A stretch of 64,000 nucleotides of DNA from Sulfuritalea hydrogenivorans sk43H (GTDB lineage Bacteria > Pseudomonadota > Gammaproteobacteria > Burkholderiales > Rhodocyclaceae): contig NZ_AP012547.1 of the NCBI RefSeq assembly GCF_000828635.1, forward strand, positions 434,001 to 498,000. Reading direction: 5' to 3'. Made by a program: the position numbers and the translations under genes. Shown piece after piece: positions 31,371 to 55,182 of this stretch (the first letter of the stretch is position 1; every line of letters starts with the position of its first letter). The notes under the pieces were generated by a model that had not been told where the DNA came from, searched no databases, and saw only the letters and a program-made list of their open reading frames with translations.

Positions 31371-31377
31371 TACGTCA

Positions 31378-32961: not shown

Positions 32962-33087
32962 CGACAAACGCACTCGCTGGCTTCCCCGGTCGAAGTGATG
33001 GATCAGGCCCGGCGCTGACTTGTTGCGAAACCATGCCATACTCAGCGCATCGATCACGATGCCCGCCGTCACACGCCGCAATTTCAA
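32962..33087 (-). pseudogene. IS3-family transposase fragment
   Basis: About 40 residues on the minus strand read VIDALSMAWFRNKSAPGLIHHFDRGSQ, the rve core around the second Asp of IS3-type OrfB. There is no start, and the frame then diverges into tniE antisense. It is a remnant of an insertion sequence directly behind the transposition genes. Confidence 0.7.
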
Positions 33088-33188
33088 GTTTTCTTGCGGG
33101 TGCTTTGCTCAATATAAAGTCCTAGTGCCCCCTAAGATTCGACAGCCTAGGAATTTGCCGTCTGGAATCGGCTTTTGCTTTTTCGACG

Positions 33189-33482
33189 CTACCGACATGC
33201 CTCGGCTACGTTGATCGAGAATTCACAAGCCGACTCGGTTTCGCGCCAATGATGCTTGTCCAGTTCGGCTGTACAGCCGGCGTCCTCTAGCAACCGAACT
33301 TTGCCGTCGGCAGTGCAGACCAAAACGATACCGCGGCGATCCCGCCATAGCGCTCGAAGGGTAAAGCCGGCAAACGGTTCAAGCAAAGACCGATCATGCC
33401 GCGTCGAGAACTCTAGAAACTCTCGCTCCGACAGGTCTGGAGACGGATCTTTGTAGCGAGGGCGCCATCTGTTCAAATTCAT
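33189..33482 (-). CDS. Hypothetical protein, possibly expressed
   Basis: A 97-residue frame from ATG 33482 (MNLNRWRPRYKDPSPDLSEREFLEF). It has no recognisable family and no good ribosome site. The stretch LRALWRDRRGIVLVCTADGKVRLLEDAG suggests a small beta-strand protein. It is in a region of IS and TniQ debris, so it may be a remnant. Confidence 0.3.
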   Translation of the reverse strand: MNLNRWRPRYKDPSPDLSEREFLEFSTRHDRSLLEPFAGFTLRALWRDRRGIVLVCTADGKVRLLEDAGCTAELDKHHWRETESACEFSINVAEACR

Positions 33483-33858
33483 AGAACGCGAAACCGGCTG
33501 GCGCGCGGCGATTGAGGATTCGTTGGCGCGGGGGTATTTCGAGCAGCGGTCGGTTGGTGTCAGGCACAAATTGCTGGTGTCTGCCCTTTGGCTGCTCGAC
33601 GACTGGCCTGAGCGCTTCGTGCGGGCAGCGGAGACGGTAGGGTTGTCGCAGTCGCGGATTCTTCGAGGAGAGTCCCTGCCGTTCTGGTTCGAGTCCGAAA
33701 TCCGTCTGAGTCTGGGAGCGGGATTTCCTGCTCCGACGGCGGCGGAAGCGAAGCAGGCCGCAGCCTATCTGGTCAAAGGCGGCGAAGAGGTTGGCTCCGG
33801 ACAGGCTCATCTGTTGAGCCTCGTCGGGCAGATACTTCTCCATACGCAGTCCAGATAG
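33457..33858 (+). pseudogene. C-terminal fragment of a second TniQ-like protein
   Basis: An open frame without a natural start reads FKFIERETGWRAAIEDSLARGYFEQ... and then LLVSALWLLDDWPERFVRAAETVGLSQSRIL...LPFWFESEIRLSLG. Its W(L)xxWPxxF(V)xxA pattern parallels the tail of the intact TniQ at 30267-31370 (GRWLSNWPKEWVSWAG...). It looks like the tail of a TnsD-type protein lost to deletion. Confidence 0.5.
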
Positions 33859-33885
33859 CTTACCCCTGACATAAGGAGCATTCGT

Positions 33886-34308
33886 ATGGAATCTGTTGCG
33901 CAACAACTCGAACAGATGATTCCCAAGTCCTTGGGCGATATCATCGTCACCAACCGGGACCAGGTTAAGGCCTATCTAACTACCGACGCCGAGATCGAGG
34001 CACTGAAGGGGGCGGTCCCAATACAGCCTGTCAAAGGCGAATTGTCCGACTGGGCTTTCATCACCTTCTTCCTGACGAAGAAGGGGCTACCGATGATCTA
34101 TTTGACGGGATTCAATGCCGCCGAGCGCTCAAGCTGGATGACGTCGCTGGTCGTCGCGATAGATGGCGACGCCGTGGCGACGACCAGTGGTTCGGTTTAC
34201 AAGCTGAAGGGTGACAAGTCGGAAGTTCTGGATCTTCCATACATCTGCGCTACTCTGAATGGTTGGGGCGTTGGTCGAATGCTCGGCGTGCCGCCGTTTT
34301 TCTTCTGA
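33886..34308 (+). CDS. Hypothetical protein in transposon cargo
   Basis: A 140-residue soluble protein with a good AAGGAG site seven bases before the ATG. It is a mixed alpha/beta sequence (DWAFITFFLTKKGLPMIYLTGFNAAERSSWMTSLVVAIDGDAVATTSGSVYKL cut into strands) without a recognised family. It ends PPFFF. The next sequence is the palindromic element, so its downstream context was probably disrupted. Confidence 0.6.
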   Translation: MESVAQQLEQMIPKSLGDIIVTNRDQVKAYLTTDAEIEALKGAVPIQPVKGELSDWAFITFFLTKKGLPMIYLTGFNAAERSSWMTSLVVAIDGDAVATTSGSVYKLKGDKSEVLDLPYICATLNGWGVGRMLGVPPFFF

Positions 34309-34452
34309 GTCCGACAGGTTCGCCATTGAGCTGGACAGTATGTGATGCGATGATTGTCGGCGCGCGTTTAAAACTACCCAGCTGTGCGCGTTGAATTTTG
34401 ACCAGGGGCTAAAGCCGCCTGTCATAGGTACGGCTGTGGATAAGTGTAACGT

Positions 34453-35780
34453 CAGTAGTGTCCGGTTAAAACGAGCCCCATGAACTGGAAACCCAGAACT
34501 GGAGCGGGATTTGAAGCGATGAAGGGTGGTGTCGATTTGAACGTCGAGCAGCGGCAATTCGGGCAGGCTTCCGGGTTTTCTTCCGGAGATGGCCGCCATG
34601 AACACCGGCAAGACCCTGTTCGCCCAGATCATGGATTTCCTTCCGTGGACGACCTTCACTCGCCTGGTCAACCGCTACGGCGGCGACCGCTATGCGAAGT
34701 CGCTCACCTGCGCCGAGCAGTTCCGCATCATGGCTTTCGCCCAACTGACCTATCGCGAGAGCCTGCGCGACATCGAGGTCTGCCTTTCTGCGCAGTCGGC
34801 GAAGCTCTATCACATGGGGTTTCGGCAGGAGATCAAGCGCTCGACCTTGGCCGACGCCAACGAGTTGCGAGACTGGCGCATCCATGCCGAGTTTGCTCAG
34901 CGGTTGATCGCGCAGGCCAGGAAGCTCTATGTCGGCGAGGCTCTGGACTTCGAGTTGGAGAACACGGCTTACGCACTCGATTCCACGACCATCGATCTGT
35001 GCCTGTCGGTGTTTCCGTGGGCGCCATTTCGTACGACCAAGGCAGCGGTCAAGATGCACACGCTGCTCGATCTGCGCGGCAACATCCCGACCTTCATCCA
35101 CATCTCCGATGGCAAACTGCACGACGTCAACGTGCTCGACGTTCTGGTGCCGGAAGCCGGGGCGATCTATGTCATGGATCGCGGCTACCTGGACTTCAAG
35201 CGACTGCATACTTTCCATCAGGCGAGCGCCTTCTTCGTGACCCGTGCCAAGTCGAACATCGATGCTCGGCGCGTCTATTCGGCGCCGAGCGATCGAGGCA
35301 TCGGCATCATGTGCGACCAGACCATCACGCTCAACGGCTACTACAGCAGTCGGGACTATCCGGCGCACCTGCGCCGCATCCGTTTCAAGGATCCCGAGAC
35401 CGGCAAAGCGCTGGTCTTCCTGACCAACAACTTCGTGCTGCCGGCGACCACCATCTGCGCGCTCTACAAGGCGCGTTGGCAGGTCGAATTGTTCTTCAAA
35501 TGGATCAAGCAGCATCTTCGGATCAAACGATTCTTCGGTACGTCGGAAAACGCGGTCAAGTCGCAAATCTGGATCGCGGTGTCGGTCTATGTTCTCGTTG
35601 CCATCATCAAGAAGCGCCTCAACCTCGACGCTTCGCTCCGCACATTGCTACAGATCCTTTCGGTTACTCTTTTCGAGAAGATGCCCTTGCAGCAAGCATT
35701 CACGACAAATGCATTGGTCGAAAATCAGGCCAACTCATCCAGCCAACTGATTCTCTTCGACTTTTAACCGGACACTACTG
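34453..35780 (+). mobile_element. Complete IS4-family insertion sequence, 1328 bp
   Basis: Perfect 19-bp terminal inverted repeats: CAGTAGTGTCCGGTTAAAA at 34453-34471 and its complement at 35762-35780. Both sides carry the 9-bp target duplication GTGTAACGT (34444-34452 and 35781-35789). It contains one intact transposase gene, so it is a young insertion. Confidence 0.93.
34598..35767 (+). CDS. IS4-family transposase
   Basis: 389 residues from ATG 34598 (MNTGKTLFAQ..., with GGAG nine bases upstream; an ATG three codons earlier is possible). The DDE residues are Asp in YALDSTTIDL, Asp in YVMDRGYLDF and Glu in the IS4 signature YKARWQVELFFKWIK. The N-terminal DUF4372-like segment (MDFLPWTTFTRLVNRYGGD) is also present. 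The frame is intact, so the element is probably mobile. Confidence 0.93.
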   Translation: MNTGKTLFAQIMDFLPWTTFTRLVNRYGGDRYAKSLTCAEQFRIMAFAQLTYRESLRDIEVCLSAQSAKLYHMGFRQEIKRSTLADANELRDWRIHAEFAQRLIAQARKLYVGEALDFELENTAYALDSTTIDLCLSVFPWAPFRTTKAAVKMHTLLDLRGNIPTFIHISDGKLHDVNVLDVLVPEAGAIYVMDRGYLDFKRLHTFHQASAFFVTRAKSNIDARRVYSAPSDRGIGIMCDQTITLNGYYSSRDYPAHLRRIRFKDPETGKALVFLTNNFVLPATTICALYKARWQVELFFKWIKQHLRIKRFFGTSENAVKSQIWIAVSVYVLVAIIKKRLNLDASLRTLLQILSVTLFEKMPLQQAFTTNALVENQANSSSQLILFDF

Positions 35781-36063
35781 GTGTAACGTATTCTCTAAGT
35801 TCGGAGTCTCCTCAGGGTTGGTTGGGATTCTGTAGCGGTTGATGGGCCGTTGCGCGGGGGAAGCCGCGCAGGGCGTAGCCCGAAGCGGATTTCCCCGCGC
35901 AACGTCCCCTTCCGCCGCTACCCAAACCAATTCAACTTCAAGGAGGTTCCCAGATCAGAGAATGCGCTACACTTATCCACAGCCGTACCTATGACAGGCG
36001 GCTTTAGCCCCTGGTCAAAATTCAACGCGCACAGCTGGGTAGTTTTAAACGCGCGCCGACAAT

Positions 36064-36317
36064 ATGTGGGTTAGATTGCTGTTTTCTATGCCCTTTTTCC
36101 CGAGTCTCTCTAGTAAAGAGACAATTTTGCGCGCGCCGCTTTTACTACCACCACGCGACATCCCGAGAGCCAAATGCAATCCAGACTGGGATAAGACACG
36201 AGTCTCATCTGGCAATACATAACACTGAATTTCAATGTTCCCAATACGAATTGGTTTATCCGGGGAACCATGTGTTGCTAAAGGCAAATCCTCGCTCCAG
36301 CTAAGGGGAGATTTCAC
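36064..36317 (-). pseudogene. P63C-like phage/plasmid protein, N-terminal fragment
   Basis: The 85 or so residues PDKPIRIGNIEIQCYVLPDETRVLSQSG...ALGMSRGG resemble the N-terminus of P63C-domain proteins. The frame starts at GTG 36317 and is cut at 36063 by the palindromic element. The first 15 bases overlap the FIST-C fragment. Confidence 0.5.
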
Positions 36318-36460
36318 CGTAGGAGTAGAAGCCGGTCAGGGCCGCTTCGTCACCCAGCACGCGGCGCACCCCCTCGACCTCCTCCTCGATGCGCTGGCCG
36401 AGTACCAATTTGCGACCAACACAACTGATGAGCACGGCAAGTTGCGCGCCGGCGGCCATG
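36301..36460 (-). pseudogene. FIST C-domain fragment
   Basis: The minus strand encodes AQLAVLISCVGRKLVLGQRI then EEEVEGVRRVLGDEA and LTGFYSYGEISP followed by a stop. This is the conserved end of FIST sensory-domain proteins. There is no upstream body in the same orientation; the rest has been lost or rearranged. Confidence 0.65.
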
Positions 36461-36499
36461 GGCAAGGCCAGGCGCTACGAGAAGGAATTCCTGCTTAAA

Positions 36500-36674
36500 G
36501 TGCAGGTCTTCAGCTACGAGGAAGCCAAGTCTCGCTACGCCAGCTTTGCCGCCGGGTCCCGATACCGCGCAACTGGTGCTGGTATTCGGCGGCACGGCCC
36601 AGCTCGATGCCGATCGCTCCCACCTATTCGATCAGGCGCGTAGAACCAAGCTAAACGTGCCGCAATTGATCTAA
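36500..36674 (+). pseudogene. FIST N-domain fragment, frameshifted, opposite orientation
   Basis: GTG 36500 opens VQVFSYEEAKSRYASF; after a frameshift the next frame reads LPPGPDTAQLVLVFGGTAQL, typical of the FIST N-terminus. It points away from the FIST C-fragment next to it, so the original gene was inverted in parts or two copies decayed. Confidence 0.45.
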
Positions 36675-36736
36675 TTGTTGAGGTTCCTATTGATACCTGC
36701 CAGATTCCATGTGGGTTTCTTGGGCCGAGCTCAAGC

Positions 36737-37444
36737 TCAGTCACTTGGTCCCTCTTTCGCGGCTGCAGCGGCCTTTGGCGCAGCCTGTTTTGACCCACTC
36801 ACCTTGCGACTGGCATGAATGGCCAAAACGTTCTGCACAAAACCAATGCCAGTGGTTCTCGCAGCAAACGCCACTACCAGGTACTGCCCAAGAAACCACG
36901 CGGCGGAGACCAGCATGCGCGTGGAATCGATACCGCTGAAATAGAGTACCGCGGGCAGCGTCGGCACTAGCAGCAGTGACATTGCCGCAATGTCACGAAA
37001 CAGAAGATAGTTCTTGTGACTGTCTACGACAGATGGATCTGAATCGACCTGTTTGTACAGAGCGTACCACTTCGAATTCTGATCTCTCTCCGCCACTGGA
37101 AACTCGCCTACGTTCTTTTTCAGCTTTGCAAGGTCGATCCGGTGGTCTGCTGGTGCATGCACAGAGAAAGCCCGTGCGCCTGGCAGCGGGTGCTTAAGAC
37201 GCCAGAACACTAGGATGGCTTTGTGGTCAGACGAGATGAGCGATGAGAGGATCAGGACTGGGATGGGCAGAAGCGCGGTCAAACTCAAGCGAATGGCTGC
37301 GATCCTCGTTGGCGTCAGATCGTCGATCGCGGTGTGGAACGCAATGACCAAAAGGACGAGGGCGTCGAGGACGAGCGTCGCAACCAGCCATGCGAGATTT
37401 CGGCCTTTCAGCGTCTTGCTTCTGTATTCCTTGGCGTTCTTCAT
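36737..37444 (-). CDS. Multi-TM membrane protein, last gene of the E2-E1-JAB operon
   Basis: 235 residues with about four membrane helices: LAWLVATLVLDALVLLVIAF near the N-terminus, LSLTALLPIPVLILSSLI, and two after residue 140 (AAMSLLLVPTLPAVLYF, AAWFLGQYLVVAFAA). Between them is a soluble segment of about 75 residues. The C-terminus is a Lys/Ala-rich tail. It is not a recognised family. It overlaps the second MBL gene by ATGA. In defence operons such multi-TM proteins are often membrane-damaging effectors; that role is inference. Confidence 0.7.
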   Translation of the reverse strand: MKNAKEYRSKTLKGRNLAWLVATLVLDALVLLVIAFHTAIDDLTPTRIAAIRLSLTALLPIPVLILSSLISSDHKAILVFWRLKHPLPGARAFSVHAPADHRIDLAKLKKNVGEFPVAERDQNSKWYALYKQVDSDPSVVDSHKNYLLFRDIAAMSLLLVPTLPAVLYFSGIDSTRMLVSAAWFLGQYLVVAFAARTTGIGFVQNVLAIHASRKVSGSKQAAPKAAAAAKEGPSD

Positions 37445-38304
37445 CCGTCGTACTCCGTGGTGACCGTATATTCGCCAGTTTCCGACACCTTGAACAGAAT
37501 CCAGCCGTCCTTTCGCGTCGTCAGGCAGCGTCGGCGCCTTGTGGTGTTGGACACCAGCACGCCATTGTCCGCGGCCGCGTACTGATACTGCGGCTTCTGG
37601 GTCGTATGGACGATCGACTTGTCCGAGATAACGACCACCTGCGGCTCAAAATAGTCGAATATCCGCTGACAGTATCCGTTGGTTCGACCGTGATGGGACG
37701 CGACCAGAACGGTGGTGTCAGCCAGCCTATCTCGAAACGCCGGCTGCTCCAGCATCGCTAACCAGCCATCCTCTTCCAAGTCGCCCGGGAACAGGATTTT
37801 GAACGGGCCGAACTCGAAGAACACGACAAGGCTCAAGTTGTTCGTGTCATAGAAGCGCGGATACGGATTGAAAAAAGTAGTCGCCGTGATCCCACCCATA
37901 TTCTGGTCGAATGGCGCATCGAGAGGGTAGACATAGTCGTTGTGAAGGGCCAGATACCGCTCGATGTCGTCGGTCAATTCGCCGTTCGCTTCCTTGATGA
38001 TCCTCAATACCTCAGGGGATACGCTGCAATTCCTATAGAACGAGGAAACGGATATTCCCTCTCTCCACAGGTTGTTCAGATCGCTAATGTGATCGAGGTC
38101 CGCATTCGTGATGAACAGGTAATCCAGCACGTTGCGTCTCAACTGACGCTTGATATACGTGCTCGGCTTCCAGCCCGTAAGCCCGTTGTCACCCGAATCG
38201 ATCATCGCCAGTCTACCTTGCTCGCCGTTCTCTGATTCGTGGGTGAGCATGGTGCAGGCGCCATGTTGCACATCCCATATCTGAAGGATCATTTGGCCCG
38301 GCAT
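37441..38304 (-). CDS. ComEC-like MBL-fold protein 2, metal-binding His replaced
   Basis: 287 residues with a metallo-beta-lactamase fold of the ComEC/Rec2 type: LQIWDVQHGACTMLTHES, LAMIDSGDN, TNADLDHISDL, ILFPGDLEEDGW and VLVASHHGRTNGY. Where related proteins have HxDxDH the sequence is NADLDH, so the first His is Asn and metal binding may be weakened. It lies 100 bp after the E2-E1-JAB gene and overlaps the membrane protein gene by 4 bp. The substrate is unknown. Confidence 0.8.
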   Translation of the reverse strand: MPGQMILQIWDVQHGACTMLTHESENGEQGRLAMIDSGDNGLTGWKPSTYIKRQLRRNVLDYLFITNADLDHISDLNNLWREGISVSSFYRNCSVSPEVLRIIKEANGELTDDIERYLALHNDYVYPLDAPFDQNMGGITATTFFNPYPRFYDTNNLSLVVFFEFGPFKILFPGDLEEDGWLAMLEQPAFRDRLADTTVLVASHHGRTNGYCQRIFDYFEPQVVVISDKSIVHTTQKPQYQYAAADNGVLVSNTTRRRRCLTTRKDGWILFKVSETGEYTVTTEYDG

Positions 38305-38404
38305 GTTGCATTCCCGCCCAGGTTGCCTTGTTGATCACTGAGAGCGAGTGGAACGTGGCCACCCCCGCGTCTCCATGCAGTGCTGGCAACCTGTTCTCTG
38401 CTCA

Positions 38405-40654
38405 TCACTTAACCGTGCCCTGCAGGACCTGCAGATCATGTTCGCCAATGATGAGTTGAACGCCCGGAAGGCCGTCATCCGCCATGCCTAATGCCAAATG
38501 GACGAGTTGCATGAGGTCATCTCTGCTGGGCGACGCGGAGTGTCCGGGCGGATGGCTGTGCCATTCACCGATGTAGCCGACGATTCCTGCGGTTCGCCGC
38601 GACGCTTCATTGACAGCCTCCGCCAATCCGGCAATGCCGCGCTCGAAGGAACCCGGACTGGACTTACTGTCGGGCGGGGCCGGAAAGCCCGCGACAACCA
38701 CGACGGCACCGATGTTGAAGTCGTAGTACCCGAGCAACACGCCGCCAGTTTCGTTGGGGAAACCTTTCGTGCGCCGGTCTCGCAGCTGGTGCTCTACGCC
38801 AGCGTCGATGAACAGGTCGAACTCGCCAAGCTCCATGCATTGTTCCGACACGACGACCACATCGTGTACTTCGACCACGCCGCGAGTGGGGTCGCGTTGC
38901 CACACACGAATCAATGCGTCCTCACGCGCCGCCGCCATCGGAATCTGCTCGGCCAACGTGCTGGCTTGGCCCATGATCCGCGAATACGGCATGACCATCG
39001 AGATGTCCCGGCAGCTCGCGCCACTCCAGAACGAACTCGCGTTGCCGGCAAGGTGATCCTTTCCCCAATCTTCCTGAATCAACGCGCGGTAGTACTGCGC
39101 TTCCAGGGTGCGCAGGCGAACCAGTCGCCGCGCATCCTCGGCAAGCAGCACGGACGCGTTACCGTTCGGGGTGATGAAGACTGAGATGTGCCTGGCGAAC
39201 GTATCGATGGCGCTCGCTGCGCGCGGGTATTCAAGGGAGGTAGAGACGTCGACCGCCAGCTTTGCTGCCGTCAACGCATTGGTAACCGACTCTTGCGTGA
39301 AGTCGCTGGCATCGGCATTTAGAGGAATGATCTCGGTCGCACCATGCATCACCGCAGCATGCAACTCGGCTACGACCGCAGTCTTGGATTCGCCGATATG
39401 CTGGGTGTAAGCCGTATGCCGCGACAAGTTGTGCGGTTTGATGTGGTCTTTGTCGATGACCGTCCAGCGACCCCATCCGCTGCGGCCCCACAGGTTGAGA
39501 ATTGCACTGCCGAGAGAACCGGCGCCGATCATCACTCCAGTCGGGCCTTCCTCGGCAATACCGGACTGCTTTCTGGCCGCTGCCGCGTCGTTTCGGTTCA
39601 GCACGTCCATCGGGAAGATCTTTTGCGAGCGCCACTGGGTTGTCATATGGTCGTTCATTACGTCTTTGAAGTACCGCTTTTCATGCAGCAGCAGTGCTCC
39701 AATCGCGACTCCAAGTTCCAATGCGCCAGTCAGCACAAAAAACGCCCGTTGGCTGGTCCCCACAGGTTCAGCCCCCACAGTCCTGCATACGGGAACGTGC
39801 AGCAGAACGACGGTCCAGCTGTCCTCGGCGGAGACAGCGACACCGGCGTCGCCAACCCGTTCCTGCATCGCTGTCCGCAGAGCGGAAACGAAATCGGTTC
39901 CTCGCCTCGACAAAATGTCGGCAAGCTGACCCAAGTTCGCCGGGTCGCGCTCCACGAAACCGTGTACTACTGGTGGCAGGACTAACTCGATGGGTGCCGC
40001 AGTGCCAGTTTTTGGTGCCGTGTCTTTCGGTATCGCTTCCAGGAAACAGGTGAAGCCCTTGTCGGGACGCTCCGGGCTTCGGGCGATCACAAAGCGATGT
40101 AACGGGCTCTCTCGAAGCTCCACGAGATTCCAAGGTAAGACGAGCTCGTACTTGGTCGCGAAGAAAAGATGCTCGACCGGCTGGTCCGCTGGATGCAGTT
40201 CGCCCCTGGCGCTCTTCTCAAGCCACCATTGAATCCGGCGTAGAAAGCTTTGCGGCGTCCATGTGCGCATCACGGTTGCAGTCGGCTCGAAGTGCAGGCA
40301 CAGACTCGCCGGAGCGCCAGGGACGCCCTGATTCTGGTGCATCAGGATCGGAAAATCCTTGCGTAGCGCCAGAACCTCCACCAGTTGCTTCGGGTTGTCG
40401 GGAACGCACAGGGCCAAGCGCTCGCGATAGTTGATGCCGTAAGTATTCTTTGGCGGCACCCCATCGCACTCGACCTCGACGATGAGACACTCAAGCTTGG
40501 CCGTACTGCCCTCAGCGTGCTGCAGAAGTTGGACCACCTCATAGTCACGCTGTCGCGTGACTGCGTCGAGCAGCGCTCGCGCACGCGGAATTGTTAGTGA
40601 CTCAGCGTCCTGGACTTCGCTGACGTTGACGAGTTCGTGATACTCCTCGGCCAT
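38405..40654 (-). CDS. E2-E1(ThiF)-JAB triple-fusion ubiquitin-like conjugation protein
   Basis: A 749-residue single chain. Residues ~25-170 resemble prokaryotic E2-like domains, with candidate Cys119 (ASLCLHFEP) before TWTPQSFLRRIQWWLEKSARGELH. Residues ~370-560 are an E1/ThiF adenylating fold: GAGSLG (377-382), Asp401 (VIDKD), Arg412, with Cys548 a candidate transfer Cys. Residues ~610-749 are a JAB/JAMM isopeptidase with Glu635, His699-x-His701 and Asp712 (HxHPxG...SxxD), so all metal ligands are present. It would activate, transfer and remove a ubiquitin-like modifier or protein C-terminus. No separate Ubl gene was found. The start overlaps the MBL1 stop as TGATG. Compare CBASS Cap2 (E2-E1) and Cap3 (JAB). 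Confidence 0.88.
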   Translation of the reverse strand: MAEEYHELVNVSEVQDAESLTIPRARALLDAVTRQRDYEVVQLLQHAEGSTAKLECLIVEVECDGVPPKNTYGINYRERLALCVPDNPKQLVEVLALRKDFPILMHQNQGVPGAPASLCLHFEPTATVMRTWTPQSFLRRIQWWLEKSARGELHPADQPVEHLFFATKYELVLPWNLVELRESPLHRFVIARSPERPDKGFTCFLEAIPKDTAPKTGTAAPIELVLPPVVHGFVERDPANLGQLADILSRRGTDFVSALRTAMQERVGDAGVAVSAEDSWTVVLLHVPVCRTVGAEPVGTSQRAFFVLTGALELGVAIGALLLHEKRYFKDVMNDHMTTQWRSQKIFPMDVLNRNDAAAARKQSGIAEEGPTGVMIGAGSLGSAILNLWGRSGWGRWTVIDKDHIKPHNLSRHTAYTQHIGESKTAVVAELHAAVMHGATEIIPLNADASDFTQESVTNALTAAKLAVDVSTSLEYPRAASAIDTFARHISVFITPNGNASVLLAEDARRLVRLRTLEAQYYRALIQEDWGKDHLAGNASSFWSGASCRDISMVMPYSRIMGQASTLAEQIPMAAAREDALIRVWQRDPTRGVVEVHDVVVVSEQCMELGEFDLFIDAGVEHQLRDRRTKGFPNETGGVLLGYYDFNIGAVVVVAGFPAPPDSKSSPGSFERGIAGLAEAVNEASRRTAGIVGYIGEWHSHPPGHSASPSRDDLMQLVHLALGMADDGLPGVQLIIGEHDLQVLQGTVK

Positions 40655-41805
40655 CAGCCCGCCCGGGGAGGTGTCGACAAGACAATCGCCGGTGCGCCGA
40701 TGGACCCCGAGCGCTTCCAGGTAACCCCGCCCCTCGTGATCTCGAAGGCGATCGGCTCCGGCTTGTTGGCGTTGGGCTCTTCCATCGTGACGAGGAACTT
40801 GCGGCCTCCAACCTCTTTCAGGTAGCGCTCATAGGCTCTGCGGGCCTGGATGTGAGGCGGCTGTATCTGGGTGTACGAATCCTTCATGTCCGGGATCGGT
40901 TTGCTGCAGCTAACAATGTACGCATCCTTCTTGCCCTGCAGCAGAAGATCCTTGACCAGCGGCTTGGGCTCAGTCTCTTTCTCGCCCTTCTGGCCTTCTT
41001 CGTTCAGTGCAAGATAGCTGCAGTGATGCGGGATGTTATACAGATCCCAGGCAAGCCGGTCGTCGTTCTTGTGATACCTCGTCGTCTTGACGATGTCCTC
41101 GATCTCCTCCCACGTGGCATCGCCGACCTCAAGGTAGTCATAGTGCGCGCCGTCGGCGCGGAAGCGCACATTGAAGACCAGCGATGCTCGGTTGCGAATG
41201 ATGTCTCCGTCATCGCAGTGCTTGATGAATGGCGAGTGGCAAAAGAACTCGACGCCGTCGGCCGCAAGCGAAAACCCTGGAACGATAGTGCCGGCATCGA
41301 TGAACAGATGGTCTCGGGCAGAGGCGGGCTCACCGCGCGCCTTCAGAAGAGGCTCCAACCAATCGACCAGCGCCTGCGGCTTCGAGAACACGAGGATGCC
41401 CTTGCCCTCAAGCAGGCGGTGCCGCGCCTCCTGCCGAAGCAAGACGTACTCCTCAGTCTGGTGATCGTTGTCCGCCTCCTCCAGCAGCATGGCGGCAGGA
41501 ACCCAGAGTTCGCGAATTTTGATGCGGCCTTCGCCGTGATATTTCTTGGCATGCTGCAGTTCGAAGAAATCGGTACTGCCCTGGATGTGGTCCAGATCCG
41601 CATGGGTGAAGGCGACGACATCAAAGTAATCGCAGTCAGCCTTCTTCAAGTCGTCCTTGAGGCGAGCCTTGAGGTCAATTTCTGGGGTATCGGCGTCTTC
41701 GGCCTTGTCCCGATGGCAGAAATCGAAAAGAACCCGGCGCCCGCCGCACAGAATGATCTGGGTAGTGTCACCGTTGCCGACGGGGTAGAAAATAACTTGG
41801 TGCAT
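40654..41805 (-). CDS. ComEC-like MBL-fold protein 1
   Basis: 383 residues from ATG 41805 (a TTG eight codons upstream is possible). Metallo-beta-lactamase fold with intact ligands: His68-x-Asp70-x-Asp72-His73 (THADLDHIQG), and a downstream NIPHHCSYLAL. The N-terminal MHQVIFYPVGNGDTTQI is typical of ComEC-like hydrolases. The C-terminus ends in a Gly (TPPRAG), which makes it a possible substrate for the adjoining E1. It is immediately upstream of the triple-fusion gene and overlaps it by one base. Confidence 0.82.
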   Translation of the reverse strand: MHQVIFYPVGNGDTTQIILCGGRRVLFDFCHRDKAEDADTPEIDLKARLKDDLKKADCDYFDVVAFTHADLDHIQGSTDFFELQHAKKYHGEGRIKIRELWVPAAMLLEEADNDHQTEEYVLLRQEARHRLLEGKGILVFSKPQALVDWLEPLLKARGEPASARDHLFIDAGTIVPGFSLAADGVEFFCHSPFIKHCDDGDIIRNRASLVFNVRFRADGAHYDYLEVGDATWEEIEDIVKTTRYHKNDDRLAWDLYNIPHHCSYLALNEEGQKGEKETEPKPLVKDLLLQGKKDAYIVSCSKPIPDMKDSYTQIQPPHIQARRAYERYLKEVGGRKFLVTMEEPNANKPEPIAFEITRGGVTWKRSGSIGAPAIVLSTPPRAG

Positions 41806-41925
41806 ATCTGCCACGATTAGCCCTTTCAAGGTGGCAGATGAAAATTTAGCACTCGGCCACGAAGAGTGCTAATCCGCACTATATATGTGGTCTTACTGTT
41901 TTTCAACACACAATATGCAATTCGT

Positions 41926-42480
41926 CTACAGGTTCCGGGGCGATTCACATGGCTCTGTGCCCGGCATCTTCACAACCATCCATCCCGCCTTCAAGGCTCT
42001 GGCATCCACCAAAGCGTGGTGCTGCTCGCCATGCAACTGGTGGTATGTCGCTATGACCCTACTAAGGATTTGATCCACTCCGCTCAGGTCGAGAATGTGC
42101 TGCACCATCCTGCCGATGAGATTGAATTCAACCGTCCACGCCCGTTCGCCGGGCGGTCGCGTCGGAAACAGCAAGAGGAAGTGGTCCCAGTCCCATGATG
42201 AGTCTGCGATCATTTGAATTTGGCACTGCCGATTACCGTCACGCACGGTATCCAGCCAAGTTTCAATCCGAACCGCCGTTGCCGCCTTGGTCAGTACCTC
42301 CGGGGCATGCCGACCGAACAGCGACAGTACGTTCTTCTTGACGAAGTCGGAGCTGCCGTTCAGGTTGGCATCCGAGATTTCAATGTACAGTTCGGCATCG
42401 CTATCAGCGACCACCAGCCCGATGGATAACAAGCTGGAAGCGGGCGAAAGATTTGTAAACTCGCAGTCATAAAAGACCAT
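41926..42480 (-). CDS. DEDDh 3'-5' exonuclease-like protein
   Basis: 184 residues from ATG 42480, chosen because of GGGGAG seven bases upstream; an ATG at 42546 adds 22 residues. Asp5-x-Glu7 (YDCEFT) opens an RNase H-fold exonuclease domain and HHALVDARALKAGW supplies the terminal His and Asp of a DEDDh site. It would trim DNA or RNA 3' ends. It lies 120 bp before the MBL1 start on the same strand and is probably part of the accessory module. Confidence 0.75.
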   Translation of the reverse strand: MVFYDCEFTNLSPASSLLSIGLVVADSDAELYIEISDANLNGSSDFVKKNVLSLFGRHAPEVLTKAATAVRIETWLDTVRDGNRQCQIQMIADSSWDWDHFLLLFPTRPPGERAWTVEFNLIGRMVQHILDLSGVDQILSRVIATYHQLHGEQHHALVDARALKAGWMVVKMPGTEPCESPRNL

Positions 42481-42697
42481 GACAGGCTCCCCGCTTGATG
42501 GAGGATCCGGCGGCAAGTCCAGCAAGTCGAAGTCAGGTCGGGCCATGTTCTAGCAGGACGCCAAAGAACGGGCTTTGCGATTGTCCGAATTCATTGAAAC
42601 AGCAGCAAGATAAGCACTCACCGGTCGATCTACCTTTCAGGGAAATACGATGTCTCCCGCCAGATCTTCTCGAGTAGCCCATGAGCGGGGCAGCTAT

Positions 42698-43351
42698 TCA
42701 CGTCAGGTTGTCCCAATCCTGGACATGGTAACTAGGCGGCGGATTCAGAACGCCCCACACCTTCTGGATTCCGGCGGCGGCAAACGCGGCGGCAAAGAGC
42801 ATGGGGCCGTCAACTACGACCGTTTCGCCGGTGCGAATGTTTTCCACCGTCACCTCGGCCTCGTCGGTATGGAAATCGCGCACAACGGAAACCGAGAAGC
42901 TCTCCCGTTTCGGAAGCGCGCGTGGGCGCGGCAACGACGTGCCGGTCATCTGTTCGAGCACGATCAGCATATGCTTGTTGGCCAGTCCGGCAAACGGCCT
43001 TCGTGGAAACTCGCAGCCGGTGTCTGCCGCGACAAACAAAGCGAGCGCGGCCGATCGGCTGATACCCGCCCGGCAATGAATGATCAGGTCCAGATACTCA
43101 GAATCGGCGTGAAGCCGGCGCACAAAGCGGATCACCTGGTCGGCGTGCGACGGATCGAACAGCGTCCAGCGCGTTTCGGTCTCGGCTCCCGGATCGACGT
43201 CGTGAAACACCAGTCGGAGAATCACGTCCTCGTGGAACGCGAGCGCCGCCGGATCCGCCTCCGGCTCGGTGATCGAAATGACCGCCAGGTCGTTTCTGGC
43301 CGGAAGGGATTCCGCCTTGAGGCGGGAAATGAAATCAACCGATCGAATCAT
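42698..43351 (-). CDS. Tyrosine/dual-specificity phosphatase-like protein
   Basis: 217 residues from ATG 43351 with a GGAGAGAG site. The catalytic P-loop IHCRAGISRSAAL (CX5R plus the following Ser) lies near residues 92-104, and a candidate general-acid Asp comes earlier (VFHDVDPG). The C-terminal part is an extra domain without a clear match. It probably dephosphorylates Tyr or Ser/Thr residues. Same strand and spacing as the neighbouring accessory genes. Confidence 0.8.
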   Translation of the reverse strand: MIRSVDFISRLKAESLPARNDLAVISITEPEADPAALAFHEDVILRLVFHDVDPGAETETRWTLFDPSHADQVIRFVRRLHADSEYLDLIIHCRAGISRSAALALFVAADTGCEFPRRPFAGLANKHMLIVLEQMTGTSLPRPRALPKRESFSVSVVRDFHTDEAEVTVENIRTGETVVVDGPMLFAAAFAAAGIQKVWGVLNPPPSYHVQDWDNLT

Positions 43352-43456
43352 GGCTCTCTCCGGTTCGTGGAGTGAATAGGTTGGGTTTGATATCGTTCAT
43401 ACAATGCCGAGGATGGTCTTCAAGGAAAGCAACGCATTCCAGTGAACGCACGGCCT

Positions 43457-43786
43457 TCACAATCTCATCGGCTGCAACACGTACGTCTTGCTGTTCACAA
43501 TATTCCCGGCTTGATCGACCTCAGGCCCCCACCCCAGCGTATGCAGGGCTTCCGCGAGGATTCGCGAAGCCGCTTGTTTATCGGCTCCCTTGGGAATACG
43601 AAAAGTCGGCAGCAGCAACTCCAGCTCGCCGGATATGCGGGGCGCCAGGAACAGGCCGTCTGGCGTAGCGCACAACAGGCCGTACTCGCCTCGCCCTTCG
43701 ATGCCCTTGATGTCGAAGATCACGCGCCCATACCACGGACTGTCTTCGCGCGTTTCGAACGCTACGCTGTCTATCCTAAAAGTCAT
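43457..43786 (-). CDS. Hypothetical protein of the accessory module
   Basis: 109 residues from ATG 43786 with AGGAGG upstream. It is beta-rich (GRVIFDIKGIEGRGEYGLLCATPDGLFLAPRISGELELLLP) and has no recognised family. It lies between the two-TM protein (40 bp upstream) and the phosphatase gene on the same strand. Confidence 0.6.
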   Translation of the reverse strand: MTFRIDSVAFETREDSPWYGRVIFDIKGIEGRGEYGLLCATPDGLFLAPRISGELELLLPTFRIPKGADKQAASRILAEALHTLGWGPEVDQAGNIVNSKTYVLQPMRL

Positions 43787-43826
43787 GATGCTCTTTGCCT
43801 CCTGAAATCTTGGCAGTTTCCCCTCG

Positions 43827-44120
43827 TCATGATCGATTCCCCCAAAAGCCGCTCGCCCGGAAAAGAACGACCCATGCCCGGACCGATGCGACAGCCCCGA
43901 GTACCGCGCCGGCGATCAACAACCCTTCACCGATGATTCGCAGGGAGATCGATGCCGGTTCCGCCATCGTGTTCCCGATCGCGATGGCGCCAGCGCCGGT
44001 CAACAGCATCACCACGCTGACCGCCATCGAACGCAACAATTGGGGCATCACCTTTTGGAAGGGAGCACACCCGGCCCGAAAGCCTTCGGTGAAGTTGGTG
44101 ATCTCTTTGCGGACCATCAT
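43827..44120 (-). CDS. Small two-TM membrane protein coupled to the AAA ATPase
   Basis: 97 residues from ATG 44120, overlapping the ATPase stop as TGATG. Two hydrophobic helices are visible (SMAVSVVMLLTGAGAIAIG and IIGEGLLIAGAVLGAVASVRA). No known family. A membrane anchor or pore for the ATPase is a reasonable inference from the overlap. Confidence 0.6.
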   Translation of the reverse strand: MMVRKEITNFTEGFRAGCAPFQKVMPQLLRSMAVSVVMLLTGAGAIAIGNTMAEPASISLRIIGEGLLIAGAVLGAVASVRAWVVLFRASGFWGNRS

Positions 44121-46303
44121 CAACTCACCCGCAGCAGCGGGCCCTCATCCACTTTTGAGCGATGCTTCGCCTTGACCTCCAGTTCCAACTGAGTCAGCCA
44201 CGCTTCCGGCGACAGCTCTTCGCCCAGCAACAGGCATTGCCGCTTCACCGTCGCAAAGTCCCCCGGCGTCAGGTCCAGCATGAACGCCAACCGCTCCTCG
44301 TAGGCCGATTGCCGTTTCTCCGCAATTGGCTTGCCGCGCAGCCCGGTTTCGTTGAGGAACATCGCCCAGCGCTGCTCCAGGGTCAGCGGCAGGAACTCCA
44401 GCTTGAAGGTGAAGCGCCGCAGCGCCGCCACATCCACCTGGCTAAACAGGTTCGTGGTGCAGATGAAGATTTCCTCGAAGCGCTCCATCCTCTGCAAGAG
44501 TTCATTGACCGTACTCACCTCCCAGCCATGCTCGCTGCGCGAGCGGTCGCGCAGGAAGGAATCCGCCTCATCCAGAAGAAGGATCGCTCCTTCTTCTTCG
44601 GCCTCATCGAAAGCCTCGGCAATGCGCTTCTCGGACTCCCCCAGATACTTGTCGAAAAGCTGGGAGGCGTGCTTGATCAGGATCGGCTTGCCCAGTTCCA
44701 GTGCCACATGCTCGGCGAACTGGGTCTTGCCTGTGCCAGGCAGACCATACAGGCACAAGCTTCCCTGCGGCCGGCGCTTCAAGGCTTGGAGTATCTGGGC
44801 GGGACCGAAGCGTCCCGCGGCATGGATGTAGTCCAGGCTGTAGCGGGTCACCGGGATCCGCGCCTCGTCCTTGCCCCGACGCGCCAGCGCCTTCTGGCTG
44901 CGCGTGGTGGCCACCAGCAGATCCCGGGCAAAGATCTTGCGGGAACGGCCCGCCGTCATCGTTGCCAGAGTCCGGGCACAGGCCAGTTGCTGGGCCGACA
45001 GTCCCTCCAACTTCGCCAGTTCCGCCTTGTGGCACTTTGCCAGCGGCAGCGACTCGATCATCGATTCAACCAGGGCCAGGCGGTCGGCTCGGGTGCCCTT
45101 CAAGGCCTCGGCATGGAACAGGAAGCGGGTCAGGGTGTCCCGATGCAGCCGTTTCGCTTCATGGGTGAGCCACAGGGTCGGCACCGGATTCTCCGCCAGC
45201 AGGCGCTCATCCAGGGGCCGAGCCTCCTCGTCCTCGTCGGTCAGCCCCAGAAAGAAGGCAAAGCCATCCGGCAAGGCCCGCGACAATACGGCCTGGGCCT
45301 TCTCGACGACCAGTACGACGCGTCCCGGTCGCCGGGCGAGCAGGCGTTGCGCCACCATCACGGCGGCGGGCCGGTCCTTCTCCGGAATGTCGGCGGCCAG
45401 GGTATAGGCGCCGCCGGCGATGGCCTGGACCAGACCATGGGCGAGGCGTTTCTTGTCGACCGAGGACTTGCCATGCACCAGCACGTTGATGCCAGGTTCG
45501 CGGCGCGCCAGCAGAACCACTAGGATTTCGCGGTCGTCGGCGGGCAGGCGTGCCGCGCCCCCGGAAGAGTCTTTCAGAGCGAGGGCTTGCAGGAGGCCTT
45601 CCTCGAAGCGGGTGCCGGTCTTGACGAGCAACTCCATCCAGAACTCGGACATCCTGGGGACGCCTTCCTTGGCATACAGCAATCCCGACCCGGCGAGTCG
45701 TCCCGTGGCCGACAGCGCCCCGGCGAGGGACTCGGCATCCAGATCAAGCAGGGTCTGCCAGAACAGGGGGCGGCTCCAGCGCTGCTCGGAGAACATCCGG
45801 GTGAAGAGCTGCGCCGCCGGGACTACCGTATAGACCAAGGCGTAGGCCATGACCCGGGTTTGCGCCGGGGAGAATTCCAGCAGACGGGCTAAGAGCGCCA
45901 GCCGGCCACCCGGGGTGATTTCCTCGGGAAAATCGTCCATCGTCAACCCCTCGCGTTGACGTGCCAGGCACTCGGCACAGGCGTTACGGTAGGTATCCTC
46001 GCTGTTCTTCAGGGCGGTGTGCAGTTCCATGCCTTCGGCCATGCGCCGGGCCAGATCGGCTGACAGGGCCATGGGTACTTGGCCGCGCAGGGTATCGATG
46101 AGGTCGAGTACCGCATCGTGTGCGCCGTAGCGGGTACGGACGCTGGCCAATGTGGCTTCAATCTCGTCGGGCCACTCGAGGATGTCGGCGACGGTGGCGT
46201 AGTGGGCGGCGAACAGCAGCGGCTCGGAGAAGAGGACCGCGAGGGTGACCGGCGTGGTGCCGACGCGCAGCGGGCCGAGGACGACATCGGGGAGGTGGGC
46301 CAT
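44120..46303 (-). CDS. Tandem AAA ATPase with a degenerate first P-loop
   Basis: 727 residues. A degenerate phosphate loop, VLVHGKSSVDKKRLA, near residue 276 marks an inactive first AAA-like domain. The second domain, from about residue 510, has an intact Walker A (YGLPGTGKTQFAEH), Walker B (ILLLDEADSFL) and sensor-1 region (IFICTTNLFSQVD). The N-terminal 250 residues are helical, and a small C-terminal lid follows. Likely an ATP-driven remodelling motor for a membrane partner. It is the first gene of the minus-strand accessory run. Confidence 0.75.
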   Translation of the reverse strand: MAHLPDVVLGPLRVGTTPVTLAVLFSEPLLFAAHYATVADILEWPDEIEATLASVRTRYGAHDAVLDLIDTLRGQVPMALSADLARRMAEGMELHTALKNSEDTYRNACAECLARQREGLTMDDFPEEITPGGRLALLARLLEFSPAQTRVMAYALVYTVVPAAQLFTRMFSEQRWSRPLFWQTLLDLDAESLAGALSATGRLAGSGLLYAKEGVPRMSEFWMELLVKTGTRFEEGLLQALALKDSSGGAARLPADDREILVVLLARREPGINVLVHGKSSVDKKRLAHGLVQAIAGGAYTLAADIPEKDRPAAVMVAQRLLARRPGRVVLVVEKAQAVLSRALPDGFAFFLGLTDEDEEARPLDERLLAENPVPTLWLTHEAKRLHRDTLTRFLFHAEALKGTRADRLALVESMIESLPLAKCHKAELAKLEGLSAQQLACARTLATMTAGRSRKIFARDLLVATTRSQKALARRGKDEARIPVTRYSLDYIHAAGRFGPAQILQALKRRPQGSLCLYGLPGTGKTQFAEHVALELGKPILIKHASQLFDKYLGESEKRIAEAFDEAEEEGAILLLDEADSFLRDRSRSEHGWEVSTVNELLQRMERFEEIFICTTNLFSQVDVAALRRFTFKLEFLPLTLEQRWAMFLNETGLRGKPIAEKRQSAYEERLAFMLDLTPGDFATVKRQCLLLGEELSPEAWLTQLELEVKAKHRSKVDEGPLLRVS

Positions 46304-46915
46304 GATCAGTGTGCCTTTTTCGGTTCAGGTGAGGTATTCAAAATTGGCGCGACTCGATCCCATCGTTCTTGCCATTTTTGACGCGAGGTCGAGCCGAACA
46401 ACCTGTCTAATGAGCGAACAATCCAGTCTCGGATCACGGGCACATTCGGTGGCCTTGATGTCATCGCACAGATGGCAGGAGTGCAAATCGCGGTACCCGC
46501 GGATGGACCGGCAACCGGCCTCAAGTCGGTCGGACTCGTCAGCAAAATCGACAATGGCGATGTGGGCGAATGCGCTACGCACGGTCAGAGACCCCTTGAC
46601 AATGGTTGGCACAAGCTTAGTGGTTCAGTGGCTCGCCACGTGAGCCACTGGATTCGTCGTTGACGAATGGACTTATTGCGCGCGGCGGCCTTGGATGCCG
46701 TCAATCAACTACCGCGCGCCGATACCACTCCGACTACTACAGTCTTGCCACTTAAAAAGAAGCACATCGTTACTATGCCGATCTGATTTCTAGGGATATC
46801 CTTGGCACCAGCTTTGCTGGCGTGCAGTGATTACGTGCCCGACGCGTATCATCGATACCTCACTGCACAACATTGAGCTAGCATAGCGGTCACTACACCC
46901 TCGATGGAGTTCGCC
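46304..46915. other. Intergenic region between AAA ATPase and HTH gene
   Basis: About 610 bp without a convincing gene. Two short minus-strand frames start at TTG or GTG (46554, 46612) and lack ribosome sites. The region probably holds the divergent promoters for the ATPase operon and the HTH gene, but no clear consensus was seen. Confidence 0.4.
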
Positions 46916-47134
46916 ATGGCCCGAAAGCAGAAACTTGATTTTTCCGACATCGCTACCACGCGAAAGAAAGCCAATCTCAGTCAGGTGGATTTCTGGGCAC
47001 GTTATGGCGTCACGCAGTCGACCAGTTCCCGCTACGAAACCGGCCGCACTATTCCGAAGCCGCTGGCGATCCTGTTATGGCTTCACCAGTCAGGGAAGGT
47101 GACGGACAAGGATCTGGCCGAAGCGTTGAAGTAA
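46916..47134 (+). CDS. Small XRE-like HTH protein
   Basis: 72 residues from ATG 46916 (GGAG upstream). The helix-turn-helix ANLSQVDFWARYGVTQSTSSRYETGRTIP matches Cro/C1-type regulators, with a short helical C-terminus. It may be the regulator of the surrounding accessory genes or an antitoxin without its toxin. It is divergent from the AAA operon. Confidence 0.75.
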   Translation: MARKQKLDFSDIATTRKKANLSQVDFWARYGVTQSTSSRYETGRTIPKPLAILLWLHQSGKVTDKDLAEALK

Positions 47135-47217
47135 TCCGTAATGGCTACGGTTCGAGTGACGGAAGGCCGTCACGGAACCCCGTCTTGTCGCTGCGCTCTG
47201 CCGGGTCGCCTATCGAG

Positions 47218-48294: not shown

Positions 48295-48382
48295 GGCGCC
48301 CCTCCTTATCTGCCGTTGCCGGCCGCTTCATTCACGCCTGCCCGGTTCTTTCCCGGCCAATAGTCTGCAAGCAACTTCGCAT

Positions 48383-49675: not shown

Positions 49676-49743
49676 GCTTCATGCCTCCTTGGTGACCGAT
49701 GCGGTGGTAATTCAGGGCAAGATGTTGTCGTTTCGAGTCACGT

Positions 49744-50010: not shown

Positions 50011-50310
50011 GACATCGTTCTGGCGATTTGACAATTGCACGAAAGCAATAGATCGTCGCACCGCATTCACAATCAGCGTGTCACACCTCTTTGCGGCCTA
50101 TTCATTAGCAATGATTGCGGGCTTGGGCATGACACCGCTCACCACGATGACCTCAACAGCACATTCGCAATAATAAATTTGTGCCACGGGTATCTGTCGG
50201 TCCCGTCCCTCGGCCTTATGGAAAGCTTTGCACAAGGCCGATTCCTAGCCAGATAGAGTGGTTCCATGGATTGGATAGAGTCACCGGGCTCTTCAGCAAT
50301 CTCGAGTCCG

Positions 50311-55132: not shown

Positions 55133-55143
55133 GCGGGGCGCCA

Positions 55144-55173: not shown

Positions 55174-55182
55174 CTGTCGTCT

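What the first reader, a model, noticed from the sequence alone, without database searches (positions are those of the whole stretch)
38405..40654. One-chain E2-E1-JAB conjugation/deconjugation protein in an uncharacterised operon
A 749-residue protein joins an E2-like domain (Cys119), an E1/ThiF fold (GAGSLG, Asp401, Arg412, Cys548) and an intact JAMM isopeptidase (Glu635, His699, His701, Asp712). In CBASS type II the equivalents are Cap2 (E2-E1) and Cap3 (JAB), in separate genes, and a CD-NTase is the target. Here no CD-NTase or Ubl gene is near. Two MBL-fold proteins and a multi-TM protein flank it with overlapping starts. This could be an undescribed ubiquitin-like defence or signalling system. 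The operon and fusion are seen; the role is inferred.
Basis: partly seen in the sequence, partly recalled or inferred. Interest (0 to 1): 0.88.

Follow-up and report, generated by a model that had tools for sequence, protein, structure and literature searches.

The report
6A-MBL conjugation operon behind heat-shock operator
A bacterial gene cluster of a known anti-virus type, in which a ubiquitin-like machine probably attaches a metal-dependent hydrolase to other proteins, sits behind the DNA switch of the heat-shock repressor, which suggests that it may be turned on when chaperones run short.

Summary
The 749-aa E2-E1-JAB protein is real (minus strand, 38405-40654). C119, D401, R412, C548, E635, H699 and H701 are identical in all 80 aligned sequences; the JAMM Asp is D713, not D712. 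It is not undescribed: Iyer 2006 lists the operon (row 6a) and NCBIfam 20 names both proteins 'anti-phage 6A-MBL system'.

Three things go beyond that; my paper searches did not find them. (1) Upstream MBL1 ends in a low-confidence tail closing on R-A-G-COOH. [RK]AG lies in the last 12 residues of 73 of 77 distinct homologues against 12 of 948 other ORFs, so MBL1 is the likely donor, as the CD-NTase is in type II CBASS. (2) The gene behind E2-E1-JAB is a swapped slot: patatin-like in 39 of 84 loci, MBL2+4TM in 14 and here. (3) A perfect CIRCE (HrcA operator) precedes MBL1. The genome has four: groESL, rpoH, both 6A-MBL operons. It recurs at like distance in 18 of 47 scored loci, window included; 29 lack it.

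Conjugation, HrcA control and defence are inferred. A 60.5-kb Tn7-like element carries the operon.

The parts
41878..41906 (-). promoter-like site TTGAAA-17-TATAGT (10 of 12), the only sigma-70-like match in 36500-42200
   Evidence: 1 found, shuffles mean 2.4, so weak alone; a TTGA(C/T)..TATA(G/A)T-like block stands directly before CIRCE in 11 of 17 relatives printed (judged by eye)
41846..41872 (.). perfect CIRCE element TTAGCACTC-N9-GAGTGCTAA (HrcA operator), directly behind the promoter, 31 nt before the likely start of MBL1
   Evidence: 0 mismatches; 0 in 100 shuffles at up to 3 mismatches; like position in relatives; 4 places in the genome
40654..41814 (-). MBL1, ComEC-like metallo-beta-lactamase-fold protein, likely GTG start (longest ORF starts at TTG 41829); H76, D78, D80, H81, D237, H268, H269 conserved (391-aa numbering)
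   Evidence: (NF058524, 394.6 bits, cut-off 220)
40657..40713 (-). low-confidence (probably disordered) C-terminal tail of MBL1 (residues 373-391) ending in R389-A390-G391-COOH; proposed conjugation donor tail
38405..40654 (-). E2-E1-JAB fusion (Cap2 and Cap3 in one chain), 749 aa
   Evidence: (NF058523, 694.8 bits, cut-off 320)
40124..40582 (-). E2 domain (Prok-E2_A, residues 25-177), catalytic C119
38465..38800 (-). JAB/JAMM domain (residues 619-730): E635, H699, H701, D713
37441..38304 (-). MBL2, second MBL-fold protein (PADLOC candidate PDC-M48B, 192 bits), T-N-A-D-x-D-H motif; proposed effector part
36737..37444 (-). four-transmembrane protein (hydropathy), overlaps MBL2 by 4 nt; no significant family match; proposed effector part
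26602..26606 (.). left copy of the 5-bp target duplication GCCAC in comM
26607..64000 (.). part inside the window of the 60,525-bp Tn7-like element that carries the operon (right end at window coordinate 87131, outside)
26713..32961 (+). Tn7-like transposition genes: tnsA, tnsB, tnsC/tniB, tniQ, zinc-ribbon protein

Best explanation
The operon is a four-gene variant of the 6A-MBL anti-phage system. SHOWN by sequence: a promoter followed at once by a perfect CIRCE operator, then MBL1 (ComEC-like MBL fold with its metal ligands and a low-confidence tail ending in a widely conserved RAG), E2-E1-JAB with all catalytic residues, MBL2 and a 4TM protein. INFERRED: in an unstressed cell HrcA, which depends on GroEL, sits on CIRCE and keeps the operon low. 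Heat, or a phage whose proteins occupy GroEL, inactivates HrcA and induces the operon together with groESL and rpoH. The E1 domain adenylates MBL1 Gly391 and takes it onto C548, passes it to C119 of the E2 domain, and MBL1 is joined through its C-terminus to lysines of a still unknown target, as the CD-NTase is by Cap2 in type II CBASS. The JAB domain removes it again, and in relatives with 2-9 residues behind RAG may also trim the precursor. The module in the third slot (here MBL2+4TM, elsewhere often a patatin) carries out a membrane- or nucleic-acid-directed attack.
For: Family. Donor tail: [RK]AG in the last 12 residues of 73 of 77 distinct MBL1 (window not counted) against 12 of 948 other ORFs of 200 aa or more from the same loci. 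A390 and G391 are at least 95% conserved in 78 aligned MBL1, like the metal ligands, and invariant in the 51 rows that I picked for the model, which did not include the four without RAG. The tail has pLDDT 49-58. The motif is coded by 6 Arg, 4 Ala and 4 Gly codons and stands in 23 of 74 cases without gene overlap, so it is kept as protein. MBL1 lies upstream on the same strand in 80 of 85 loci. MBL1 and E2-E1-JAB distances correlate (n 77, r 0.77, 0 of 1000 permutations). Best solved match: Cap2, with entries that hold the CD-NTase C-terminus. In CBASS the CD-NTase C-terminal Gly/Ala is conserved only beside Cap2+Cap3 (PMC10097602, passages). Downstream slot. CIRCE; hrcA, groESL and rpoH identified.
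Against: No conjugate, phage test or HrcA binding was measured. CIRCE is absent (5 or more mismatches) in 29 of 47 scored loci, and 42 of 89 rows could not be scored that way, so it belongs to one branch of the family. Among 36 host genomes tested, HrcA is in 10 of 12 with CIRCE and in 16 of 24 without, no clear difference. In the genome scan the backwards control pattern also gave one place. 4 of 78 MBL1 lack [RK]AG, and of 15 plasmid loci 6 end in xHG and 2 in GFG instead, at or a few residues before the end. 21 of 78 have residues behind RAG, so a free Gly is not universal without trimming. Target and trigger are unknown. MBL2 ends in Gly too, but always as GGA in an overlap with the next gene (15 of 15).
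Confidence: 0.68

Rival explanations
1. A heat-shock protein-quality system, not an immune system: MBL1 is conjugated to damaged proteins or complexes when folding fails, and CIRCE control is simply that of a proteostasis operon.
For: The genome's only other CIRCE sites (up to 3 mismatches), besides the second 6A-MBL operon, are those of groESL and rpoH; JAB and E1/E2 chemistry suits quality control.
Against: Patchy spread over phyla, plasmids and a Tn7-like element, variable third gene such as patatin, NCBIfam label 'anti-phage', WYL regulators beside 7 of 15 plasmid loci and CapK/CapS in front of 7 MBL operons in print.
Confidence: 0.17
2. The E2-E1-JAB protein acts on a Ubl encoded elsewhere (ThiS/MoaD-like); MBL1 is only a nuclease effector and RAG serves localisation or stability.
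For: The E1 fold also matches ThiF; neither the genome nor the 85 loci were searched for a Ubl.
Against: 80 of 85 loci have MBL1 directly upstream; the RAG tail is about as conserved as the active site; the model's best match is Cap2, ahead of ThiF.
Confidence: 0.12
3. MBL2+4TM are a separate PDC-M48-like defence module that merely travels with the core.
For: 100-nt gap in the window; an MBL2 relative stands without an annotated core within about 3-5 kb on a Rahnella plasmid.
Against: Same order and strand in 14 loci (two of them one contig) plus the window, gap down to 1 nt; the same slot holds patatin in relatives.
Confidence: 0.25
4. The RAG motif is an artefact of the MBL1 stop / E2-E1-JAB start overlap.
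For: One-base overlap in the window.
Against: All synonymous Arg, Ala and Gly codons are used, 23 of 74 have no overlap, and in 21 RAG lies before the end.
Confidence: 0.02

Closest known systems
6A-MBL anti-phage system (NCBIfam NF058523/NF058524); operon type 6a of Iyer et al. 2006 (PMC1779556)
   Same: E2-E1-JAB in one chain with an MBL-fold gene next to it; both proteins far above the curated cut-offs.
   Different: Here two further genes (MBL2, 4TM) and a CIRCE operator; the passages of the 2006 paper that I saw mention no donor tail, third slot or CIRCE.
Type II CBASS (Cap2, Cap3, CD-NTase, effector)
   Same: E2-E1 and JAB chemistry, structural match of the model to Cap2, donor with conserved C-terminal Gly, swappable effector slot (CBASS patatin effectors recalled).
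   Different: No CD-NTase beside it; an MBL-fold hydrolase in the donor place; E2, E1 and JAB fused.
Bil and Bub systems (bacterial ubiquitin-like)
   Same: E1, E2 and JAB-type enzymes in defence operons (recalled); Bub E1-E2 structures appear lower in the fold search.
   Different: They encode a Ubl (recalled); no such gene is in this operon.
Trypsin-MBL modules of AVAST, Hachiman, Lamassu, DRT (PMC12799240, passages)
   Same: A ComEC-like MBL nuclease gene directly upstream of its partner.
   Different: The partner is a trypsin-like protease that cuts the MBL; here a conjugation enzyme.
HrcA/CIRCE regulon (groESL, rpoH)
   Same: Operator identical in sequence and placed at the promoter.
   Different: The controlled operon encodes a defence-type conjugation system, not chaperones or a sigma factor.

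Membership tests
6A-MBL system | E2-E1-JAB protein over NF058523 cut-off (320 bits) | tested here: met
   694.8 bits
6A-MBL system | MBL protein over NF058524 cut-off (220 bits), adjacent gene | tested here: met
   394.5 bits, one-base overlap
6A-MBL system | anti-phage activity | not testable with these tools
   name only; no experiment seen; '6A-MBL' is in no held paper
Type II CBASS | CD-NTase gene in the operon | tested here: not met
   no such model among the nine proteins scanned; the rest of the genome was not searched
Type II CBASS | E2-E1 protein with Cap2 architecture and both catalytic Cys | tested here: met
   (7to3, E 2.4e-25)
Type II CBASS | Cap3-like JAMM isopeptidase | tested here: met
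   present but fused; E635, H699, H701, D713
Type II CBASS | conjugation donor with C-terminal Gly or Ala | tested here: inconclusive
   conserved in MBL1 as sequence; conjugation not testable here
Bil / Bub | ubiquitin-like gene in the operon | tested here: not met
   the operon holds four genes only and none of the nine proteins scanned hits a beta-grasp model; a Ubl too divergent for these models would be missed
HrcA regulon | CIRCE at the promoter | tested here: met
   0 mismatches, like position in 17 other scored rows
HrcA regulon | hrcA gene in the genome | tested here: met
   TIGR00331, 327.5 bits, cut-off 197.2
HrcA regulon | HrcA binding and heat induction | not testable with these tools
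   needs an experiment
Tn7-like transposon | tnsA, tnsB, tnsC, tniQ; inverted ends; 5-bp duplication | tested here: met

The most novel reading that the evidence does not exclude
A ubiquitin-like bacterial immune system that senses chaperonin occupancy. HrcA needs GroEL to stay active; phage proteins that fill GroEL release HrcA from CIRCE, so the operon is induced exactly when a GroEL-dependent virus (or proteotoxic stress) is present. A ComEC-like hydrolase is then covalently attached through its RAG tail to infection targets while a swappable membrane, lipase or MBL effector is fired. The donor of the ubiquitin-like reaction is an enzyme of MBL fold, a second non-Ubl donor beside the CD-NTase.
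Probability: 0.4. Interest if true: 0.9.

Novelty: new variant of a known kind. Interest (0 to 1): 0.72.

Why it matters
The 6A operon type has been in print since 2006, yet my searches found no published mechanism. If MBL1 is the donor, ubiquitin-like conjugation in bacteria uses at least two unrelated enzymes in the place of ubiquitin, and the RAG tail gives a one-residue test. If HrcA controls the operon, a defence system is wired to the chaperonin, which can be tested by heat shock, an hrcA deletion or GroEL-dependent phages. The swapped third slot offers a panel of candidate effectors.

Tried and rejected
Undescribed system: rejected. RAG as overlap artefact: rejected. MBL2 as second donor: its terminal Gly is always GGA within an overlap with the next gene (15 of 15), so not supported. 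Upstream genes 41926-46303 (AAA ATPase, 98 aa, 109 aa, phosphatase-like, RNase-AS-like) as operon members: no relative in any of the 85 loci at E 1e-3, so left out. 4TM as a known effector family: no significant Pfam, NCBIfam or PADLOC match (best Pfam listing among eight homologues E 0.036, below its cut-off). CIRCE following HrcA in hosts: 10 of 12 against 16 of 24 of the 36 genomes tested, no support. CIRCE on viral contigs: 104 stretches with an exact match, 80 listed; none of these 80 holds a relative of the nine proteins, 8 show groES/EL-like patterns. Phage records: no match to E2-E1-JAB. The 'MBL2' profile was iterated three times and may include other MBL-fold proteins, so its counts outside the 4-gene clade are loose. 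Locus counts include near-copies (L044 and L052 are the same contig; so are L045 and L094).

Rows dropped: one search kept the best 80 of 197 relatives (78 loci). One search left out proteins under 690 aa (E2-E1-JAB) or 330 aa (MBL1) and identical ones. L006, L047, L055, L058 and L101 had no MBL1 ORF (L006 and L101 begin at a contig end; L047 is a truncated gene on a 7.5-kb contig; L055 is one long ORF; in L058 MBL1 is missing); no anchor in 42 of 89 rows. The alignments for the models held 57 E2-E1-JAB and 51 MBL1 rows of my choice; the four MBL1 without RAG were not in the latter. One search left 11 of 80 rows without a label. HrcA was sought in 36 host genomes and 3 plasmid records only.

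Full report
WHAT IS THERE. The reported ORF is real and lies on the minus strand (38405-40654, 749 aa). It carries Prok-E2_A, ThiF and Prok-JAB domains in that order. In an alignment of 80 sequences, window included, C119, D401, R412, C548, E635, H699 and H701 are identical in all; the JAMM Asp is D713. In a second alignment of 17 rows (window, nine divergent plasmid members, seven from genomes) these residues and D713 stand in all, some with HxHL in place of HxHP. AlphaFold2 gives mean pLDDT 89.7, with a low-confidence loop at 540-552 that holds C548. The best solved match is Cap2 in complex with the CD-NTase CdnD02 (7to3, E 2.4e-25, 649 columns); Cap2 bound to the CdnD02 C-terminus follows. 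By sequence the JAB part hits a solved peptidase (9ild, 1.3e-5) and the E1 part hits Cap2 (7tsq, 0.0023).

ALREADY NAMED. NCBIfam 20 calls the protein '6A-MBL_cap2_3' (694.8 bits, cut-off 320) and its upstream neighbour '6A-MBL_enzyme' (394.5 bits, cut-off 220), both 'anti-phage 6A-MBL system'. Iyer et al. 2006 describe the triple-module protein as 'almost always next to a metallo-beta-lactamase' (row 6a; PMC1779556, passages). [quoted passage not shown] '6A-MBL' itself is in no held paper, and further searches gave no mechanism (listings and, for a few papers, passages). Many subscription papers and all bioRxiv preprints are outside that library, so a published mechanism may exist.

RELATIVES. 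A scan of one genome per species found 197 relatives by close patterns, of which the best 80 were kept as 78 loci. With 7 more from whole genomes and viral contigs, 85 loci hold an E2-E1-JAB relative (two contigs appear twice). 80 of these have MBL1 upstream on the same strand, 77 within 130 nt. In the window's order 5 of 399 genomes, own included, are over the family cut-off. Among plasmids 278 of 72,556 records match, 221 over at least 80% of the query. The window's own genome has a second copy, 52.3% (E2-E1-JAB) and 67.6% (MBL1) identical, with a patatin gene behind it.

MBL1 AS DONOR. MBL1 has a ComEC-like fold (9ic4, E 1.6e-13, TM-score 0.50 by query and 0.69 by target) with its metal ligands conserved. 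Its last 20 or so residues are modelled with pLDDT 49-58 and end in RAG. Of 78 distinct MBL1 (window included) 74 carry [RK]AG in the last 25 residues: 53 exactly at the C-terminus (6 of them have the motif twice) and 21 with 2-9 residues behind it; 4 have none (L046, L108, L118, L121). In the last 12 residues it is in 73 of 77 (window not counted) against 12 of 948 other ORFs from the same loci. Codons vary freely and 23 of 74 have no overlap with the next gene. A390 and G391 are at least 95% conserved in 78 aligned MBL1 and invariant in the 51 that I chose for the model. Of 15 plasmid loci examined, 7 have RAG, 6 xHG and 2 GFG at or a few residues before the end. For type II CBASS the C-terminal Gly/Ala of the CD-NTase is conserved only in operons with Cap2 and Cap3, and it is the residue that is conjugated (PMC10097602, PMC11153139, passages). 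By the same logic MBL1 is the donor here. This is inference; nothing was measured. Residues behind RAG would need trimming, perhaps by the JAB domain.

THIRD SLOT. Of 84 loci scored behind the E2-E1-JAB gene, 39 have a patatin-like gene, 14 MBL2+4TM (13 distinct, besides the window), 18 a membrane protein of about 250 or 165 aa, 3 an MBL-fold gene alone, 2 a metallophosphoesterase, and in 8 none was recognised. Four patatins were checked against Pfam and all pass its cut-off; one 165-aa-type protein was checked and matches PADLOC PDC-M48A; the others rest on clustering and profiles. On a quick tree of 80 rows, 69 of them labelled, the labels change at least 8 times (minimum 4; shuffled mean 30.4, as low in 0 of 200), with a patatin locus (L063) inside the set of 16 that holds the MBL2+4TM rows. 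So the module is swapped, as effectors are in CBASS (recalled). MBL2 has N in place of the first metal His in all 14 distinct clade members, so its activity is open.

CIRCE. Reading the promoter I saw TTAGCACTC-N9-GAGTGCTAA at 41846-41872. It is perfect, and 100 shuffles of the window give none at up to 3 mismatches. It follows a TTGAAA-17-TATAGT promoter (not above chance by itself); 11 of 17 relatives show such a block at the same place (by eye). In the 1.6 Mb of loci held then, each site with at most 3 mismatches lies at an MBL1 gene: in front of it, or just behind a start called too early (L065, L073), and in L067 566 nt before the called start. Scored from a conserved anchor in MBL1, 18 of 47 rows (window included; L044 and L052 are one contig) have 0-2 mismatches at 82-102 nt; the other 29 have 5 or more, as shuffles do; 42 of 89 rows had no anchor. 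The spacers differ, so the arms are conserved for themselves. The whole 3.8-Mb genome has four places (up to 3 mismatches; the backwards control pattern gives one): groESL, rpoH, this operon and the second 6A-MBL operon. Its hrcA gene scores 327.5 bits. HrcA repression through CIRCE and its dependence on the chaperonin are described in PMC4534711 and PMC12038028 (passages). Of 17 held papers with HrcA, CIRCE and phage (titles and abstract starts seen, these two in passages) none is titled or begins as one on a defence system; in a wider search 337 papers qualified and the 15 listed had neither HrcA nor CIRCE. That phages fill GroEL is recalled. Against a simple story: 29 of 47 rows lack CIRCE, and of 36 host genomes tested HrcA is in 10 of 12 with CIRCE and 16 of 24 without. 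WYL regulators stand beside 7 of 15 plasmid loci read (one had no annotation), so other branches probably use other switches.

CARRIER. The operon sits in a Tn7-like element of 60,525 bp with 11-bp ends TGAGACTTCCA and a GCCAC duplication. It splits a gene that I take for comM, from the ChlI hit of its N-terminal half and from recall for the other half. Its transposition genes are at the left end.

VERDICT. A known kind of system in a new variant. Most likely mechanism: chaperonin-linked induction, conjugation of MBL1 through Gly391, effector in the third slot. Confidence 0.68 for the whole chain; the family assignment is near certain, the operator strong, the donor role likely, the defence and effector roles plausible.

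Noticed in passing
window 26602-64000 and on to genome position 521131: 60,525-bp Tn7-like element inserted in comM, duplication GCCAC, ends TGAGACTTCCA; tnsA-tnsB-tnsC-tniQ-zinc-ribbon gene at the left end.
   Followed up: partly
L041 4649-9161 (genome C1:1882648-1887160): Second 6A-MBL operon in the same genome, own CIRCE (1 mismatch), patatin as third gene, MBL1 tail with two RAG motifs (PPRAGLESRPIRAG).
   Followed up: partly
window 41926-46303, minus strand: Upstream set: AAA ATPase resembling IetA (76 bits, far below the NCBIfam cut-off of 510), 98-aa and 109-aa proteins, phosphatase-like and RNase-AS-like proteins; perhaps another defence module; no relatives in the 85 6A-MBL loci.
   Followed up: no
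L058 about 2450-2633: MBL1 is missing; read by eye, the frame upstream looks like acetate kinase but ends in PPRAG and a stop, as if the tail alone remained; near a MAG contig edge, may be misassembly.
   Followed up: no
L136, L137, L138, L142, L144 (xHG) and L139, L141 (GFG): Divergent MBL1 tails seem to go with enzyme type: of five xHG loci examined four have a JAMM with HxHL, and both GFG loci have HTHP.
   Followed up: partly
window 34353-36063: DUF4372/DDE transposase with 26-nt ends, framed by 99-nt inverted arms, 99% complementary.
   Followed up: no
window 47218-49675: Tle1-like phospholipase and DNase II genes side by side within the same element.
   Followed up: no
L133, L140, L142, L143, L144, L146, L147: WYL-domain regulators divergent to MBL1 on plasmids of Enterobacteriaceae, Xanthomonas, Acinetobacter and Rhizobium; no CIRCE within 4 mismatches on these seven loci.
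   Followed up: no
L177 5424-5548 and other IMG/VR loci: Exact CIRCE elements on 104 viral-contig stretches, three in tandem on L177; what they control was not examined beyond a groE pattern in the 80 listed.
   Followed up: partly
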